Shown: one piece after another, positions 24,779-32,076 of the stretch
How the letters are laid out: every line of letters begins with the position of its first letter
How positions within the stretch are numbered: position 1 is the first letter of the stretch
DNA from: Desulfuromonadales bacterium
GTDB taxonomy: Bacteria > Desulfobacterota > Desulfuromonadia > Desulfuromonadales > JAHYIW01
Reading direction: 5' to 3'
NCBI GenBank assembly: GCA_029210745.1
Contig: JARGFI010000002.1
Span: 40,425 to 104,424 of the forward strand
DNA length: 64,000 nt
Program-made: the position numbers and the translations under genes
Notes under the pieces: model-generated
Database searches by the model: none
What the model was told of the DNA's origin: nothing
What the model saw: only the letters and a program-made list of their open reading frames with translations

Positions 24779-27001
24779 ATGAATAATTTCGATGATGACT
24801 TGGGCATGGTGCCTTATCCGCTGATTTTCCCAGAAGCCGAAGAAAAAATGTTAGGGATTTCACTGCCCCGAAAAGTCGGCAAATTGAAAGCTGGTGAGTA
24901 TCACTTCATTGAGGCCTATTGTGTTGAGGAGGGTTGTGATTGCCGCCGGACATCGATTTTTGTCGTTAATGCCAAGGGAAAAATGGTCGCCACGATCGAC
25001 TTTGGATTCGATCCTGACCACCCGTTGTCCGGGCCGTTTCTCAATGAGTATCAGAAACAACTGGCCGGGGCCGAGGAGTTGCTGGAAATCTTCGTTGACG
25101 AGATCAACAACAACCCCGATTGGCTGAAGAGGATGTATAAACAGTATAAACAGGTACGCAAGGAAGTTGATGGTAAAACATATCGCGGCAAAGCTTTTCC
25201 GAAACCGGGATTGGTGCCGCGTTCGCACAAACTTCCCCCTGCCGACGAAGACCTTTGTGCGGATTTTAAACAGCTGCTAGAAGCTGCGGTGAAATCCCCG
25301 CCGATTTCCAATAAACACTTGAAGAGGAGTAAAGGGGCGCTAGGTCAACTGCTCACCGAACCCCGCCCTGTGGCGAAAAATATGACGGAATGGGTTGAGT
25401 TTTTCCTGCAGAATCAGCAGGATTCATTCAGCGGGCACGATTTCAGGAAGACAGAGCTGCAACGCTTTTTGCTTGCATATGACCGGGCTGAGGATGAACT
25501 GGCCCAACTTATCGTTGAGCTGTACATGCGCAAGGATGAAGCGCGACTGGATGAGGCGCTGACTGTCTTAACCGATGTGTGTGATATCCTGCGCACGGAC
25601 CTGGAACGACGTCGTCCCGATGCTATGCGCCGGATTGAAAACTGGCAAGCGGCCCTCGCTCGACATGTCTACGCCGAGAGTGTCGACATGGAACTGGGAG
25701 CCATGGTCACCCAGGTGTTGCTGGACACCCGGATCGAGATTTTGCCGCTGTTGCACCAGGCCAACAGCCAGCGAATGCTGGCAAAATTAGACCATGATCC
25801 GGAATTCGCAGCGGACCCCGAGCAGGGCATGCGTGAGTTGCTCAGTGCGCTTGAAGAGCTGGAAAGCGGCAGTCCTTTTGAACTGTTCGACGCCGTGCTG
25901 CAAATGATGTTGGTTGGTGACAGCGATGTGCAGGTGATACTGTGCCGGCATATGCTTGAAGTAGAACATCCGGTGATTCGGGAAATGGCGGCCCTGATGC
26001 TGTTTCATCCTGTCGCCGAGGTGCGGAGCGGCGTGGCCCGACAGTTGGCGGAGGTTGAGGGGCGCTTCCTGACCCCGGAAACTTTGCGCCGCCTGATTGT
26101 CGCTCGCAACTGGTTTCCCGAGGAGTTGCGCAAGCAGATTGACCAGACCGTGACCAACGCCCGCCGCGCGCGCGTGGAGTGTGCGCCGCTGCCGCCACGG
26201 CGTGGCACGGTTGTCTATGCGTCCGGTGTTGATGGCGCCATGGCACAGACCTTTCAGGTGATGATTCCCGAAGGAAAAGGCTTTCTGTGCTGTGCAATCA
26301 TGCCTAAACGGGGAGCCGGGGTCGCCGATGCTTTTTTTATCCATTTGGCAAACAAACGTGAGCGCAACAATTTTGTCGAGATGCTGAAGGCAGAAACCGG
26401 AGCCCACGAATCGACGTCAGACTATCTTGACAGACGGATCTGTCAGGCGCTGGCCGATGGCGCCGAACATGGGAAGGTTCCCAGCCACTGGCTGGCCGCG
26501 ATCGCCGAACAACTCGGCTGTGACCAGTGGAAAGCGGCGCCGCTCGACGTGATGGCTGAACTGAAAAGTTTACGCAACGCGCTGGAAAGTTGCGGGGCGC
26601 GTTATGTGACCGAGCGTTACCGGGAACAGGCGTTCATTGCCTCGGCATCCTGGCTTCTGCAACAAACGTTTGCCTATTCCTGGTTTGAGGATGATGTTGA
26701 CGTTGACAAGATTGTGCAAAAGACGCAAGGCAGGAAGAGGCAGATCGACCCGGAGCGATGTATTGACACAATCTTGCATAAAATTCTTCAGCCGCGTCGT
26801 AAGCAATGGCTGGAACGTTTGGTGTTGACAACCCGGTGGTTAAAGTCGATCAAAAAGCCGCCGGTCCCCTGGGAGCAAATGTTTCTCGTGACCGAGGCGC
26901 TGGCCGATGAGACGGTGGCTATCGAAGATATTCCGCTGATGGACGTCATCGCCGCCGAGAGTTTCGCGGCGTATCTTGGGCGGCGGGAGGAGGGGCGATA
27001 A
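24779..27001 (+). CDS. Uncharacterised 740-aa protein with N-terminal Cys-rich motif (YCVEEGCDCRR) and helical-repeat-like middle
   Basis: Long ORF starting 1 nt after the mqnE stop; no family recognised. Confidence 0.75.
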   Translation: MNNFDDDLGMVPYPLIFPEAEEKMLGISLPRKVGKLKAGEYHFIEAYCVEEGCDCRRTSIFVVNAKGKMVATIDFGFDPDHPLSGPFLNEYQKQLAGAEELLEIFVDEINNNPDWLKRMYKQYKQVRKEVDGKTYRGKAFPKPGLVPRSHKLPPADEDLCADFKQLLEAAVKSPPISNKHLKRSKGALGQLLTEPRPVAKNMTEWVEFFLQNQQDSFSGHDFRKTELQRFLLAYDRAEDELAQLIVELYMRKDEARLDEALTVLTDVCDILRTDLERRRPDAMRRIENWQAALARHVYAESVDMELGAMVTQVLLDTRIEILPLLHQANSQRMLAKLDHDPEFAADPEQGMRELLSALEELESGSPFELFDAVLQMMLVGDSDVQVILCRHMLEVEHPVIREMAALMLFHPVAEVRSGVARQLAEVEGRFLTPETLRRLIVARNWFPEELRKQIDQTVTNARRARVECAPLPPRRGTVVYASGVDGAMAQTFQVMIPEGKGFLCCAIMPKRGAGVADAFFIHLANKRERNNFVEMLKAETGAHESTSDYLDRRICQALADGAEHGKVPSHWLAAIAEQLGCDQWKAAPLDVMAELKSLRNALESCGARYVTERYREQAFIASASWLLQQTFAYSWFEDDVDVDKIVQKTQGRKRQIDPERCIDTILHKILQPRRKQWLERLVLTTRWLKSIKKPPVPWEQMFLVTEALADETVAIEDIPLMDVIAAESFAAYLGRREEGR

Positions 27002-27003
27002 GC

Positions 27004-27393
27004 ATGCTGCGACTGAGCGAGCAGGAAAAACAAGAGATTATCGGTTATTTGGATTCGAATAAAGAATTGCCGGAAAAGTACCGCTTTTTACTCTTCGACG
27101 ACAAGCGCGAGGTGGAGCTGGTCTGGAACGGCAAGCGCGAGATCATCCGCCTTCGCTCTGAAGAAGCTTCGGCAGTCGAGTCCGGTCCGGGTATTGACGA
27201 AGAATGGCAGGAGCAGTGGACCGGCGATTACGTCTTCGAGAACGAGTGGCAATCCTTCCGCACCAAGAAGGACCGTTCTCTGGAGCTGATCAGCGTCGCC
27301 CACGAATGCCCGCCGGGCCGGCGCAAGATCGCGGTGAAGGTGGTGGATATCTTCGGCAACGACACTATGACCATTGTCGAGGTTTCGGTATGA
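27004..27393 (+). pseudogene. Apparent internally deleted type III DNA methyltransferase (Mod) remnant: N- and C-terminal ends joined, catalytic core absent
   Basis: N-term LSEQEKQEIIGYLDSNKELPEKYRFLLFDDKREVELVWNGK and C-term WTGDYVFENEWQSFRTKKDRSLEL...RRKIAVKVVDIFGNDTMTIVEVSV match remembered ends of type III Mod proteins; no DPPY or FxGxG motif. Confidence 0.55.
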
Positions 27394-27462
27394 GTCCGCA
27401 GATTACACCGATCAACGCAGATCGAGCAGTTTAAGCCCGGCGAATTCGACGGGTTTTAAAAC

Positions 27463-27486
27463 AAATATGGCGAATTCGCCATATTT
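27463..27486. repeat. Perfect 24-bp palindrome AAATATGGCGAATTCGCCATATTT
   Basis: Self-reverse-complementary; 16 bp upstream of the KilA-N start codon; half-site GGCGAATTCG also at 27439-27448. Confidence 0.9.
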
Positions 27487-27502
27487 AAATTGGAGCAAAT
27501 GC

Positions 27503-28330
27503 ATGGGCAAAAACAACGAAATTATCGTTCTCGAAGAGACGGTTCGTGTTCAGCGCATTAAACAGAATGATTACATTTCCCTGACCGATATCGCCAAGTT
27601 CAAGAATTCAGATGATCCTCGTTTTGTTATCCAGAACTGGATGCGAACACGTTTCTCCGTCGAGTTTCTGGGTATTTGGGAGTTGCTGAACAATCCGGAT
27701 TTTAACCGTGTGGAATTCGACACGGTTAAAAATGCTTCGGGAAGCAATGCGTTCGTCATGACGCCCACCAAGTGGATAGAACTTACCCGTGCCATTGGCA
27801 TCGTTTCGAAAGCTGGTCGCTATGGCGGGACCTACGCGCACAAGGACATTGCCTTCGAGTTCGCTTCGTGGGTGTCGGTTGAGTTCAAGCTTTACTTGAT
27901 CAAGGAGTTCCAGCGGCTCAAGGAAGCTGAACAGGCGCAGCTCGGCTGGGATATCAAACGCAATCTGGCGAAGATCAACTATCGTATCCATACCGATGCC
28001 ATCAAGGAGAATTTGCTTCCGCCGGCACTGAACGCGAAACAAGTCAGCCTGACTTACGCCAGTGAGGCCGATGTGCTGAACATGGCATTGTTCGGCATGA
28101 CCGCCAAACATTGGCGAGATGCAAATCCGGGGGAAAAGGGGAATATCCGCGACGAGGCGAATGTCGCCCAGCTCATCTGTCTCTCCAATCTTGAGAATCT
28201 GAATGCGCTCTTCATCAGTGAAGGATTGCCGCAGGCCGAGCGGCTACAAAAGCTCAACTCCATCGCAATCAGTCAGATGCGATTGTTGACCGAGGATCTG
28301 GGCGTAAAAAAACTTGGAGAGAAGAAGTAA
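27503..28330 (+). CDS. KilA-N domain protein
   Basis: DYISLTDIAKF..., VMTPTKWIELTRAIGI, GGTYAHKDIAFEFASWVSVEFKLYLIKEFQRLK; start at 27503 (MGKNNEI) preferred over the track's 27374. Confidence 0.85.
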   Translation: MGKNNEIIVLEETVRVQRIKQNDYISLTDIAKFKNSDDPRFVIQNWMRTRFSVEFLGIWELLNNPDFNRVEFDTVKNASGSNAFVMTPTKWIELTRAIGIVSKAGRYGGTYAHKDIAFEFASWVSVEFKLYLIKEFQRLKEAEQAQLGWDIKRNLAKINYRIHTDAIKENLLPPALNAKQVSLTYASEADVLNMALFGMTAKHWRDANPGEKGNIRDEANVAQLICLSNLENLNALFISEGLPQAERLQKLNSIAISQMRLLTEDLGVKKLGEKK

Positions 28331-31018
28331 TGGCCCTGCATCCTGATTTCCCCAACTCCCCTCACGCGATTCTCAATCCCGAGGTTCGCTGGTTCCCGGC
28401 TGACGAGGCGCTACGCGAAACGACCATGGACAAGCTGATGCCGCCACTGGTGTCACAACTGCGGCGCAAGGTGAAGGAGTTTCGCGACGGGGGTTACGTC
28501 GGTGCGACCGAGACCAGCAAGAGCCTGCTGAACTGGTGGTTCAGAGAGCCGCATCTACAGGAGCGGGCTGACGGGACGACCGAGGAGTTTCGCTACTTCT
28601 TCGCCCAGCGCGAAACGCTGGAGACGATTGTCTATCTCTACGACGTGGTCGGTGCCAAAGATAAGTTCGACCTGATGCGCTTTGACGGCAGCGGGGTGGT
28701 GTCGGCCGGGATGTTCGACGAAAGCTGGCGGCGCTACGTGGTGAAGATGGCCACCGGCAGCGGCAAGACCAAGGTGCTGAGTCTGGCGCTGGCCTGGAGC
28801 TTCTTCCATAAACTCTATGAGTCGGACTCGACACTGTCGCGCAACTTTCTGGTGATTGCACCCAACATCATTGTCCTTGACCGCATCTACAAAGACTTTC
28901 AGGGTCTGCGCATTTTCTTTGATGATCCGGTGATCCCCGATAACGGTTTCGACGGCCGCAACTGGCGGGACGATTTTCAGCTGACTCTGCACGTGCAGGA
29001 CGAGGTGCGTGTCACGCGCCCGGTCGGCAATATTTTTCTGACCAACATTCACCGTGTCTATTGCGGGGAGGAGATTCCACCCACACCGGACGACGACAAC
29101 AGCATGGATTACTTCCTCGGCAAGCGGCCGAGCGGCGCAACCACCGACTCAAAAGTCGACCTGGGAATGATCGTGCGCGACATCGACGAACTGATGGTGC
29201 TCAACGACGAGGCGCACCATATCCATGATGCCAAGCTGGCGTGGTTCCAGTCGATTCAGGATATCCACAATCGCCTGCTGCAGAAGGGGGATGCGCTCTC
29301 CCTGCAACTCGACGTAACCGCCACCCCGAAACACAACAATGGCGCCATCTTCGTGCAAACCGTCTCCGATTACCCACTGGTTGAGGCGATCTGGCAGAAC
29401 GTGGTCAAGCATCCGGTCCTCCCCGATGCTCCCAGCCGCGCCAAGCTTACCGAACGCCAAAGCGCCAAATACACCGAGAAGTACGCCGACTACCTCGATC
29501 TTGGGGTGATCGAATGGCGCAAGGCCTACGACGAACATCAGAAGATGGGGAAGAAGGCGATCCTCTTCGTCATGACCGACGACACGCGCAACTGTGACGA
29601 CGTGGCCGAATATCTGGAGGGGCATTATCCTGACCTGAAGGGGGCGGTGTTGGTGATCCACACCAAAAGTAACGGCGAGATTTCGGAAGCCGCCTCGGGC
29701 AAGGCAAAGGAAGTGCTTGAAGCGCTGCGCAAGCAGGCCAACGATATTGATTCCATGGGAAAGTCCGTACAAGGCCATCGTCTCGGTGCTGATGCTCAAG
29801 GAGGGCTGGGACGTGCGCAACGTGACAACCATCGTCGGCTTGCGCGCCTATGCCGCCAACAGCAATATCCTTCCCGAGCAGACCTTAGGCCGTGGACTGC
29901 GCAAAATGTACCCCGGTGACGTGGAGGAGTATGTCAGCGTGGTCGGTACAAACGCCTTCATGGAGTTCGTCGAGTCGATTCAGGCCGAAGGGGTTGAACT
30001 GGAACGCAAAGCGATGGGGCAGGGGACCGGGGCTAAGACGCCACTGGTGATCGAGGTCGATACTGAAAATGACACGAAGGACCTCGATAAGCTTGATATC
30101 TTCATCCCGGTCCTTTCGCCGCGTATCTATCGCGAGTATAAAAATCTGGCCGATCTGGACACAGGATCGATACCCTTTCAGGCATTGCTCTACCGGCAAT
30201 TCAGTGAAGCAGAACAGCGGGAAATCGTTTTTAAGGACATCACCAGCGGTGTCATTACGCACACCACGATTCTTGATAGTGCCGGGGTGGCCGACTATCG
30301 CAGCGTCATTGGCTACTTTGCCCAGACGATCATGAAGGAGTTGCGACTCGTCAGTGGTTACGATGTGCTCTACGGCAAGGTCAAGACGTTCGTGCGGGAT
30401 GCACTGTTCGGATCGATGATTGAGCTTGAATCGCCCAATACTTTGCGCAATCTTTCGGAGCTGGCCGCCACAAAGACGGTAATTGAATCCTTCAAGAAGG
30501 CGATCAACGAACTGACCGTTCGCACCAAGGGTGACGCACAGATCCGCGACACCATCAAGCTTCGCGAGACCCGCCCCTTTGTCGTCAAGGATCAAGGCTA
30601 TCTGATGGCGAAGAAGAGCGTTTTTAATCGCGTTATCGGTGACAGCCCCTTTGAGCTGTGCTTCGCCAGTTTTTTGGAAGATTGCGACGACGTGGTTTCT
30701 TACGCCAAAAACTATCTGGCGGTCCATTTCAAACTGGATTACGTTAAGGCCAATGGCGATATGTCCAACTACTATCCCGATTTTCTGGTTAAAATGACAG
30801 ATGGCCGGATTGTGGTGGTCGAGACCAAGGGTCAGGTGGACGAGGATGTCCCGCCGAAAATGGCCCGGTTGTGTCAGTGGTGTGAGGATCTCAATCGTTT
30901 ACAATCGACTGTGAAGTACGCTTTTGTCTTTGTGGACGATGAGGGCTTCAAAAAATACGGCCCCAAAAACTTTCGTCAGGTTTTGGAAGGATTTAAGGCA
31001 TATCAGGAATGCTGCTGA
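28330..31018 (+). pseudogene. res: Type III restriction enzyme Res-like helicase/nuclease, split by a +1 frameshift near 29757
   Basis: MATGSGKTKVL Walker A, NDEAHH box, SVLMLKEGWDVRNV motif, C-terminal YYPDFLVKMTDGRIVVVETKG PD-(D/E)XK; ORFs 28330-29919 and 29717-31018 are in different frames. Confidence 0.8.
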
Positions 31019-32076
31019 CCGATTTGCAAAAAAAAGTTGAGGATGGAGGCATTCTCGACCGCGCCGAGGCGCTCTGGCTGCTGACCGAAGCTGATCTGCT
31101 TCAAGTTGGTAAATTGGCTGACGCGATCCGCCGCAAGAAGCATCCGCATAACCGGGTGACGTTTGTGGTTGACCGCAATGTCAATTACACCAACGTCTGC
31201 CAGTCGCAGTGTAAATTTTGTGCGTTCTATCGCGACGCCGACGCTGCGGATGCCTATGTGCTGTCCCACGAAGAAATTTTTCACAAAATCCAGGAACTGG
31301 TTGATCATGGCGGCACCCAACTGTTGATGCAGGGAGGGCTGCATCCTGAGCTGAAGATCGGTTGGTTCGAGGAGTTGTTTCGCGAGATTCGACAGCGCTT
31401 TCCGCAGGTGCAGATTCATTCCCTTTCGCCCGCCGAGGTGATTCATGTCGCCCGTCTGTCGGAGCTGTCGATGCCGGAGTGCCTGCGGCGCTTGCAGGCT
31501 GCCGGCCTCGCTTCGGTGCCGGGGGGCGGTGCGGAGGTGTTGGTCGATGCGGTGCGCAAGGAGATTTCACCGAACAAAATCGGCTGGCGCGACTGGGCCG
31601 CCGTGATGGAAGAAGCGCACCGCTTGGGGATGCGTACCACCGCGACGATGATGTTCGGTTCTAAAGAGCAGCCAGAGGATATTGTCGAGCATCTCTTCCG
31701 GGTGCGCGAGATTCAGTCGCGCAGTGGTGGTTTTACCGCCTTTATTCCGTGGACTTTTCAGCCGGACAATACTGAGCTGGGGGGCGAAACGGCGAGCGGG
31801 GTGGACTATCTCAAGGTCCTGGCATTGTCACGGATCGTGCTCGATAATATCGACAATATTCAGGCGAGCTGGGTGACACAAGGGGCGATGATGGCGCAGG
31901 TAGCCCTCTTTTTTGGTGCCAACGACCTGGGGGGGACGATGCTCGAAGAAAACGTCGTTGCTGCCGCCGGGGTGGAGTTTCGCATGACTCAAGACGAGGT
32001 TGTCGAGGTGGCGCGCGGAGCGGGGTTTACTCCGGCGAAAAGGAGTACCGCTTACGCGATTCTGGAAGAGTATTAA
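31009..32076 (+). CDS. mqnC: Dehypoxanthine futalosine cyclase MqnC (radical SAM)
   Basis: DRNVNYTNVCQSQCKFCAFYRD, LLMQGGLHPELKIGWFE; start overlaps res 3' end. Confidence 0.9.
   Translation: MLLTDLQKKVEDGGILDRAEALWLLTEADLLQVGKLADAIRRKKHPHNRVTFVVDRNVNYTNVCQSQCKFCAFYRDADAADAYVLSHEEIFHKIQELVDHGGTQLLMQGGLHPELKIGWFEELFREIRQRFPQVQIHSLSPAEVIHVARLSELSMPECLRRLQAAGLASVPGGGAEVLVDAVRKEISPNKIGWRDWAAVMEEAHRLGMRTTATMMFGSKEQPEDIVEHLFRVREIQSRSGGFTAFIPWTFQPDNTELGGETASGVDYLKVLALSRIVLDNIDNIQASWVTQGAMMAQVALFFGANDLGGTMLEENVVAAAGVEFRMTQDEVVEVARGAGFTPAKRSTAYAILEEY

What the first reader, a model, noticed from the sequence alone, without database searches (positions are those of the whole stretch)
27004..27393. Methyltransferase reduced to its two ends by internal deletion
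The 129-aa ORF joins what I recognise as the N-terminal leader of type III Mod proteins (FLLFDDKREVELVWNGK) to the Mod C-terminus (FENEWQSFRTKKDR...KVVDIFGNDTMTIVEV). No catalytic DPPY or FxGxG motif remains. The junction appears to be at WNGK|REIIRL, so an in-frame fusion survived. Loss of Mod would leave Res without protective methylation, consistent with Res also being broken.
Basis: partly seen in the sequence, partly recalled or inferred. Interest (0 to 1): 0.6.

Follow-up and report, generated by a model that had tools for sequence, protein, structure and literature searches.

The report
Dead methyltransferase stump beside surviving KilA-N gene
The 129-residue gene is a real but dead stump of a DNA-methylating enzyme that lost its middle before two related species split; the surprise is next door, where a gene for a predicted anti-phage protein carries, inside its own coding sequence, a mirror-symmetric DNA site that the protein probably recognises.

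Summary
Window 27004-27393 joins the first 44 residues of a ~770-aa type III-like Mod (70-82% identical to intact homologues) to its last ~85-93 (62-71%). About 620 residues, including the whole methylase domain, are missing; the junction lies on a 5-bp microhomology.

A congeneric species has the same 129-aa ORF and junction (92% aa), but its differences fall 11 nonsynonymous to 3 synonymous, the neutral ratio; flanking genes are strongly constrained. Other miniature Mods have other junctions, some out of frame. So this is a relic, not a small-protein family. Res is broken too (frameshift here; reduced to its two ends in the sister).

What stays intact is the KilA-N gene between the two wrecks, a full-length match to defence candidate PDC-S22. 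In 53 of 54 distinct relatives and 9 of 10 held-out plasmid genes, it carries a 30-bp palindrome inside its coding sequence; half-sites vary widely yet stay symmetric. Half-site type covaries with residues of the KilA-N domain, not with the C-terminal half. I propose a self-recognised DNA site, possibly for self-immunity as aba is for BstA. No paper found in the held library describes it.

The parts
27004..27393 (+). 129-aa miniature Mod: relic of a ~770-aa type III-like DNA methyltransferase
27004..27135 (+). retained Mod residues 1-44
   Evidence: 70-82% identity to starts of intact Mods
27131..27135 (+). deletion junction on microhomology GCAAG
   Evidence: comparison with seven intact homologues
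27136..27390 (+). retained Mod C-terminal part
   Evidence: 62-71% identity to ends of intact Mods; MTase_III profile 558-616/616
27430..27459 (.). intergenic GAATTC-centred palindrome P1, degenerate (12 of 15 pairs), between Mod stump and KilA-N
   Evidence: conserved position in L009, L012, L016
27460..27489 (.). intergenic palindrome P2 (TATGGC type, 12 of 15 pairs)
27503..28330 (+). intact KilA-N gene, 275 aa; full-length match to PADLOC PDC-S22
   Evidence: PF04383 E 3e-20; PDC-S22 E 3.5e-131, residues 1-272
27701..27730 (.). palindrome inside the KilA-N coding sequence, 14 of 15 pairs, encodes FNRVEFDTVK (residues 67-76)
28330..31018 (+). Res, full length (~895 aa) but split by a frameshift between about 29740 and 29780 (ORFs 28330-29919 and 29717-31018)
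   Evidence: ResIII in the first ORF and endonuclease-like domain in the second; intact homologues are 893-898 aa
23689..24777 (+). MqnE, upstream gene of the host menaquinone operon
   Evidence: TIGR03700 over cut-off
24779..27001 (+). 740-aa host operon gene of unknown function, next to the MqnC gene in relatives that lack the RM genes
31009..32076 (+). MqnC, downstream gene of the host operon; its start overlaps the end of Res
   Evidence: TIGR03699 over cut-off

Best explanation
The 129-aa ORF is a dead relic of mod. A mod - KilA-N - res unit had been inserted without a scar between two genes of a menaquinone operon. In the common ancestor of this species and its congener, a deletion between short repeats (GCAAG) removed the catalytic middle of mod and happened to stay in frame. 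Since then the stump has drifted. Res was lost separately: a frameshift in this species, an internal in-frame deletion in the sister. Shown: the fusion, the shared junction, the lack of protein-level constraint, the empty sites in relatives, both Res lesions. Inferred: the order of events, and that loss of the methylase made an active Res intolerable. The KilA-N gene in the middle survived. Every KilA-N gene of this family examined but two carries a symmetric, diversified DNA site inside its reading frame. I think the KilA-N protein is a phage-defence factor that binds such a site (binding is inferred from covariation) and that the site works as a self-immunity or self-control element, as aba does for BstA (function inferred, not tested).
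For: Two-ended homology with the middle missing. Same ORF and junction in the congener G001, neutral substitution ratio 11:3 against 31:74 in flanking genes, p = 6e-4. Microhomology at the junction. Empty sites: four relatives have the flanking operon genes contiguous. Res frameshift here, 115-aa miniature Res in the sister. Independent miniature Mods with other junctions: L003, L004, L005, L024, L057, L185, L186; two of those found through KilA-N are out of frame. KilA-N intact in G000, G001, L003, L054, L185 and L186 beside eroded mod and/or res. Palindrome. Covariation with the KilA-N domain. PDC-S22. BstA/aba: (PMC8585504).
Against: The stump has fewer total differences from the sister (14) than the flanking synonymous rate predicts (about 46, Poisson P about 2e-8), and only one lies in the last 193 bp. 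So either the region was recently exchanged between the species or its DNA, not its protein, is constrained. The mod 3' end is also a sharp boundary of cassette exchange between the two species, which fits recent exchange. The Res frameshift rests on a draft assembly. For the KilA-N part: no experiment, and the palindromes in front of the gene are of other types than the one inside it.
Confidence: 0.9

Rival explanations
1. The miniature Mod is a selected small protein, for example a Res-binding or dominant-negative subunit made of the two ends of Mod.
For: In frame in two species; other one-ORF miniature Mods exist in distant phyla: L003, L004, L005, L057.
Against: Neutral 11:3 substitution ratio. 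Junctions and retained segments differ in every lineage. The in-frame cases were found with an in-frame query; L185 and L186, found through KilA-N, are out of frame. In these loci Res is absent or broken too.
Confidence: 0.04
2. The 129-aa ORF is kept only as DNA: the conserved mod 3' end serves as the landing site where accessory cassettes (KilA-N, DUF4325, AAA ATPases, nucleases) are exchanged.
For: Identity between the two species is 95% up to the exact mod stop codon and then switches to another cassette. Stray mod 3' ends of 21-45 codons precede second cassettes in L014, L019, L024, L032, L034, L063. Only one difference in the last 193 bp.
Against: Ordinary homologous or illegitimate recombination at a conserved gene end gives the same pattern. 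In the listed sequences the synonymous positions of the mod 3' end vary freely among distant loci, so no strict DNA motif is evident. It explains the swap, not the loss of the middle of mod.
Confidence: 0.2
3. The KilA-N gene is a plain autorepressor of the RM locus, like RptR or the C proteins, and its palindromes are operators.
For: PHROG 2657 'transcriptional regulator'. Two palindromes precede the gene in the window and up to three in L009, L012 and L016 at fixed spacing. In the whole genome the pattern occurs only in this cassette. RptR represses an RM island through promoter palindromes (PMC12255303).
Against: The most constant site lies about 200 bp inside the coding sequence, and intergenic ones are usually absent outside RM loci. 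Operators of an autorepressor should match its own half-site type; the intergenic ones differ from the internal one in every locus that has both.
Confidence: 0.3
4. The ORF is an assembly artefact joining two pieces of an intact mod.
For: Draft genome of 118 contigs.
Against: The same junction is present in an independent genome of another species, inside a 6.6-kb block aligned without gaps.
Confidence: 0.01

Closest known systems
Type III restriction-modification mod/res (PADLOC MTase_III PDLC03633, REase_III; PF01555, PF04851)
   Same: Intact homologues have a beta-class methylase and a ResIII helicase-nuclease in adjacent genes; the stump is the two ends of that Mod.
   Different: No catalytic domain is left; Res is frameshifted; an accessory gene sits between mod and res. 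Intact Res homologues score below the NCBIfam restr_BPTD_3080 cut-off (256 of 800 bits), so this is a neighbouring subfamily.
PDC-S22 (PADLOC phage-defence candidate, PDLC04962)
   Same: The window KilA-N protein matches the model over its whole length (E 3.5e-131).
   Different: PDC-S22 is only a prediction; no mechanism and no DNA site were found for it in the held papers.
BstA-aba of prophages (PMC8585504)
   Same: A KilA-N-like defence protein whose own locus contains a short DNA element acting as homologue-specific self-immunity.
   Different: aba is 63 bp, overlaps the start of bstA and depends on direct CCCGCC repeats; here the element is a 30-bp palindrome at codons 67-76 of another KilA-N family.
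RptR repressor of RM islands (PMC12255303)
   Same: DNA-binding protein in RM loci with palindromic sites.
   Different: RptR sites are 6-bp palindromes in the promoter; the held text does not mention KilA-N; no coding-sequence site appears in the passages read.

Membership tests
Type III Mod (functional methyltransferase) | N6_N4_Mtase catalytic domain (PF01555) | tested here: not met
   no Pfam match in the 129-aa protein; present in the intact homologue L006
Type III Mod (relic of) | collinear homology to both ends of one Mod ORF | tested here: met
   MTase_III C-terminal 59 positions
Distinct small-protein family | same architecture in independent lineages and purifying selection | tested here: not met
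   junctions differ by lineage; neutral ratio 11:3
KilA-N domain protein (PF04383) | Pfam KilA-N above its curated cut-off | tested here: met
   72.5 bits, cut-off 23.8
PDC-S22 | full-length match to PDLC04962 | tested here: met
   residues 1-272, model 1-274 of 281
PDC-S22 | protects cells from phage | not testable with these tools
   needs phage challenge in a laboratory strain
BstA-aba | homology to BstA beyond a KilA-N domain | not tested
   no BstA sequence was compared
BstA-aba | short DNA element inside the locus of the defence gene, differing between homologues | tested here: met
   palindrome at a fixed codon position with at least 32 half-site types
BstA-aba | element relieves its cognate protein | not testable with these tools
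   only covariation with the KilA-N domain was tested

The most novel reading that the evidence does not exclude
KilA-N proteins of the PDC-S22 family recognise a palindrome encoded inside their own gene, by the very stretch that codes for a helix of the DNA-binding domain. Half-site and domain co-diversify into many mutually distinct types, giving each gene a private self-recognition element as in BstA-aba. The palindromes of foreign types in front of the gene in some RM loci would then give immunity to other KilA-N types. The RM genes around it are expendable and erode to stumps while the KilA-N cassette persists and is exchanged.
Probability: 0.4. Interest if true: 0.82.

Novelty: new variant of a known kind. 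Interest (0 to 1): 0.55.

Why it matters
The Mod stump itself is an ordinary RM relic, though a well dated one: it predates a species split, drifts neutrally, and shows how an RM unit inside an operon decays. What matters is the neighbour. A coding-sequence palindrome that keeps its symmetry through large changes of sequence, and whose type tracks residues of the encoded DNA-binding domain, would be a compact system in which protein specificity and target are written in the same bases. It would give a defined handle on a defence candidate with no known mechanism, and would suggest that gene-embedded self-immunity (so far BstA) is common among KilA-N proteins of phages, plasmids and RM loci.

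Tried and rejected
(1) Distinct small family: rejected, neutral ratio and lineage-specific junctions. (2) In-frame retention as a sign of function: rejected after finding out-of-frame cases with an unbiased query. (3) Assembly artefact: rejected by the sister genome. (4) RNA hairpin in the KilA-N message instead of a DNA site: outside the outer three pairs, departures from symmetry are about as often A-C (about 11) as G-U (about 15), so no preference for wobble pairs. (5) Palindrome as a by-product of amino-acid or codon use: rejected; synonymous recoding gives 8.3 of 15 pairs (max 9.2) against 13.6 observed, and dealing right halves among sequences gives 3.35 of 7 variable pairs (max 3.98) against 6.32. 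(6) Whole-genome regulon: rejected; the pattern occurs only twice in 2.7 Mb, both in this cassette. (7) Different types within one genome as a sign of incompatibility: all 5 genomes with two legible genes of different loci have different types, but with so many types this is expected by chance. (8) Solved homologue by sequence: none; by fold only weak similarity to DdrC and, much weaker, the Mbp1 DNA-binding domain.

Full report
1. What is at the coordinates. Window 27004-27393 (+) is a 129-aa ORF. Against homologues from the GTDB genome collection its residues 1-44 match the beginning and residues 37-129 the end of single ORFs of about 700-840 aa. The intact homologue L006 (770 aa) carries the N6_N4_Mtase domain at residues 120-423 and scores best with the PADLOC type III methyltransferase model. 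About 620 residues (44 to about 668) are absent from the window ORF. Comparison of the junction with seven intact homologues shows GCAAG shared by both sides (27131-27135), the mark of a deletion between short repeats.

2. Age and constraint. The only other genome held from the family, a second species of the genus (G001), has the same ORF with the same junction, 92% identical in protein. The surrounding 6.6 kb is 95% identical without gaps and ends exactly at the mod stop codon. So the deletion predates the split, and an assembly artefact is excluded. The 14 differences in the stump are 11 nonsynonymous and 3 synonymous (78.6% against a neutral expectation of 78.5%). The two flanking menaquinone genes have 31 and 74; Fisher p = 6e-4. 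NG86 omega is 1.0 for the stump against 0.11-0.18 for three flanking genes. There is no sign that the protein is selected. (My script labels 'mqnC' and 'mqnE' are exchanged: NCBIfam names the upstream gene MqnE and the downstream gene MqnC. The p740 row is out of register and is not used; the value is.)

3. An unexplained detail. Total divergence of the stump (14 of 387) is below what the flanking synonymous rate predicts (about 46). The differences cluster at 27159-27200, with one in the last 193 bp. Recent exchange at the mod 3' end, or constraint on the DNA, would both do; I cannot separate them with two genomes.

4. The unit and its site. Four relatives without the RM genes have MqnE - 740 aa - MqnC contiguous. 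The RM unit therefore lies scarless in an operon: two bases after the 740-aa stop, and with the Res end overlapping the MqnC start. Res here is full length but frameshifted. In the sister it is reduced to its first ~85 and last ~27 residues, in frame. Between them the two species carry different cassettes: KilA-N here; DUF4325 (PF14213) plus another KilA-N in the sister. The KilA-N proteins are only 66% identical although the flanks are 95% identical in DNA.

5. The same erosion elsewhere. Miniature Mods with other junctions occur in L003 (inside a V-type ATPase operon; subunit I named), L004, L005, L024, L057, L185 and L186; reduced Res occurs in L004, L024, L052, L057, L074 and L186. The in-frame ones were mostly found with an in-frame query. 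The two found through KilA-N (L185, L186) are out of frame. In G000, G001, L003, L054, L185 and L186 the KilA-N gene is intact beside eroded mod and/or res. KilA-N genes also stand in other RM types, in prophages, on plasmids or alone. This suggests, but does not prove, that KilA-N is the part under selection.

6. The KilA-N palindrome. The window KilA-N protein matches defence candidate PDC-S22 over its full length. At a codon position fixed by protein alignment (residues 67-76; window 27701-27730) the gene reads TTTAACCGTGTGGAATTCGACACGGTTAAA, a palindrome in 14 of 15 pairs. In 54 distinct 30-mers from RM, genomic and viral loci, 53 have 11-15 symmetric pairs although there are 32 different 7-base half-site types. 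Mean 13.57; synonymous recoding gives 8.3 (max 9.2). For the seven variable pairs, 6.32 observed against 3.35 (max 3.98 of 2000) when right halves are dealt out among sequences. Ten plasmid genes fetched afterwards as a hold-out: nine carry it, the exception being Latilactobacillus curvatus. Identical 30-mers recur in different phyla, so the sample is not a set of fully independent events. In the 2.7-Mb genome the pattern TTWAA-N7-GAATTC-N7-TTWAA occurs only in this cassette, with no match of the reversed control.

7. Who reads it. After removing overall similarity, half-site type correlates with residues 31, 38-45, 84-102 and a few neighbours of the KilA-N domain (r up to 0.47) and, trivially, with the residues it encodes. 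It does not correlate with residues 1-26 (mean -0.02) or 131-275 (114 columns, mean -0.05, maximum 0.075). Linkage alone would not skip residues 1-26. No phylogenetic permutation was run, so this is strong but not formal evidence. The AlphaFold model (mean pLDDT 83, pTM 0.53) puts residues 39-48 and 69-78 in helices of that domain. Fold matches are weak: DdrC (DNA-binding) and, far lower, the Mbp1 DNA-binding domain.

8. Likely mechanism. BstA is a prophage defence protein with a KilA-N-like domain; its locus contains a 63-bp DNA element, aba, that suppresses the cognate BstA only (PMC8585504). A diversified, self-matched DNA element inside a KilA-N defence gene is the same logic, so self-immunity is my leading guess. 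In L009, L012 and L016 up to three palindromes of other types precede the gene at fixed spacing, and two precede it in the window. They always differ in type from the internal one, which fits immunity to other types better than autorepression, but this is inference. Autorepression of the RptR kind (PMC12255303) remains a real rival. Searches of the held library for KilA-N with palindrome or inverted repeat gave no paper, and the six with 'palindromic' are not about this by title and abstract; subscription journals and preprints are not in that library.

9. Verdict. The reported feature is an ordinary, old RM relic (interest about 0.25 alone). Following it led to a feature of the neighbouring gene that deserves experiments (interest about 0.8 if the mechanism holds). 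The overall score lies between.

Noticed in passing
window 27701-27730, 27430-27459, 27460-27489: Palindromes inside and in front of the KilA-N gene; covarying half-sites across phyla.
   Followed up: yes
window 27393; L084 6642: DNA identity between two congeneric species stops exactly at the mod stop codon, where the accessory cassette changes (KilA-N against DUF4325 plus another KilA-N).
   Followed up: yes
L014 9982-10059, L019 9459-9587, L024 3592-3654, L032 8070-8141, L034 8068-8202, L063 155-223: Stray copies of the last 21-45 codons of mod in front of second accessory cassettes; in L034 the start of Res is fused to the end of Mod.
   Followed up: partly
mod 3' ends in most loci: Two architectures: GGAGGNAAR-TAATGG, with the next gene's Shine-Dalgarno inside the last mod codons, or GTRTGA, with the next start overlapping the stop.
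   Followed up: partly
L009 2592-2701, L012 5615-5724, L016 6284-6393: Conserved upstream array of three palindromes of different types, spaced 25 and 55 bp, in three phyla; L016 has no KilA-N gene of this family in the held stretch.
   Followed up: partly
window 27201-27393: Only one difference between the two species in the last 193 bp of the dead mod stump, fewer than expected for neutral DNA.
   Followed up: partly
L208 5752-7209: The start of a Res protein (MPFPPDFPQNPYTIL) fused in frame to what looks like an aldehyde dehydrogenase, next to a broken KilA-N gene.
   Followed up: no
L185 7858-8895 and 12164-18000: One contig holds an eroded mod plus intact KilA-N and, 3 kb on, an intact mod with another accessory gene and a Res that is open to the end of the stretch.
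   Followed up: partly
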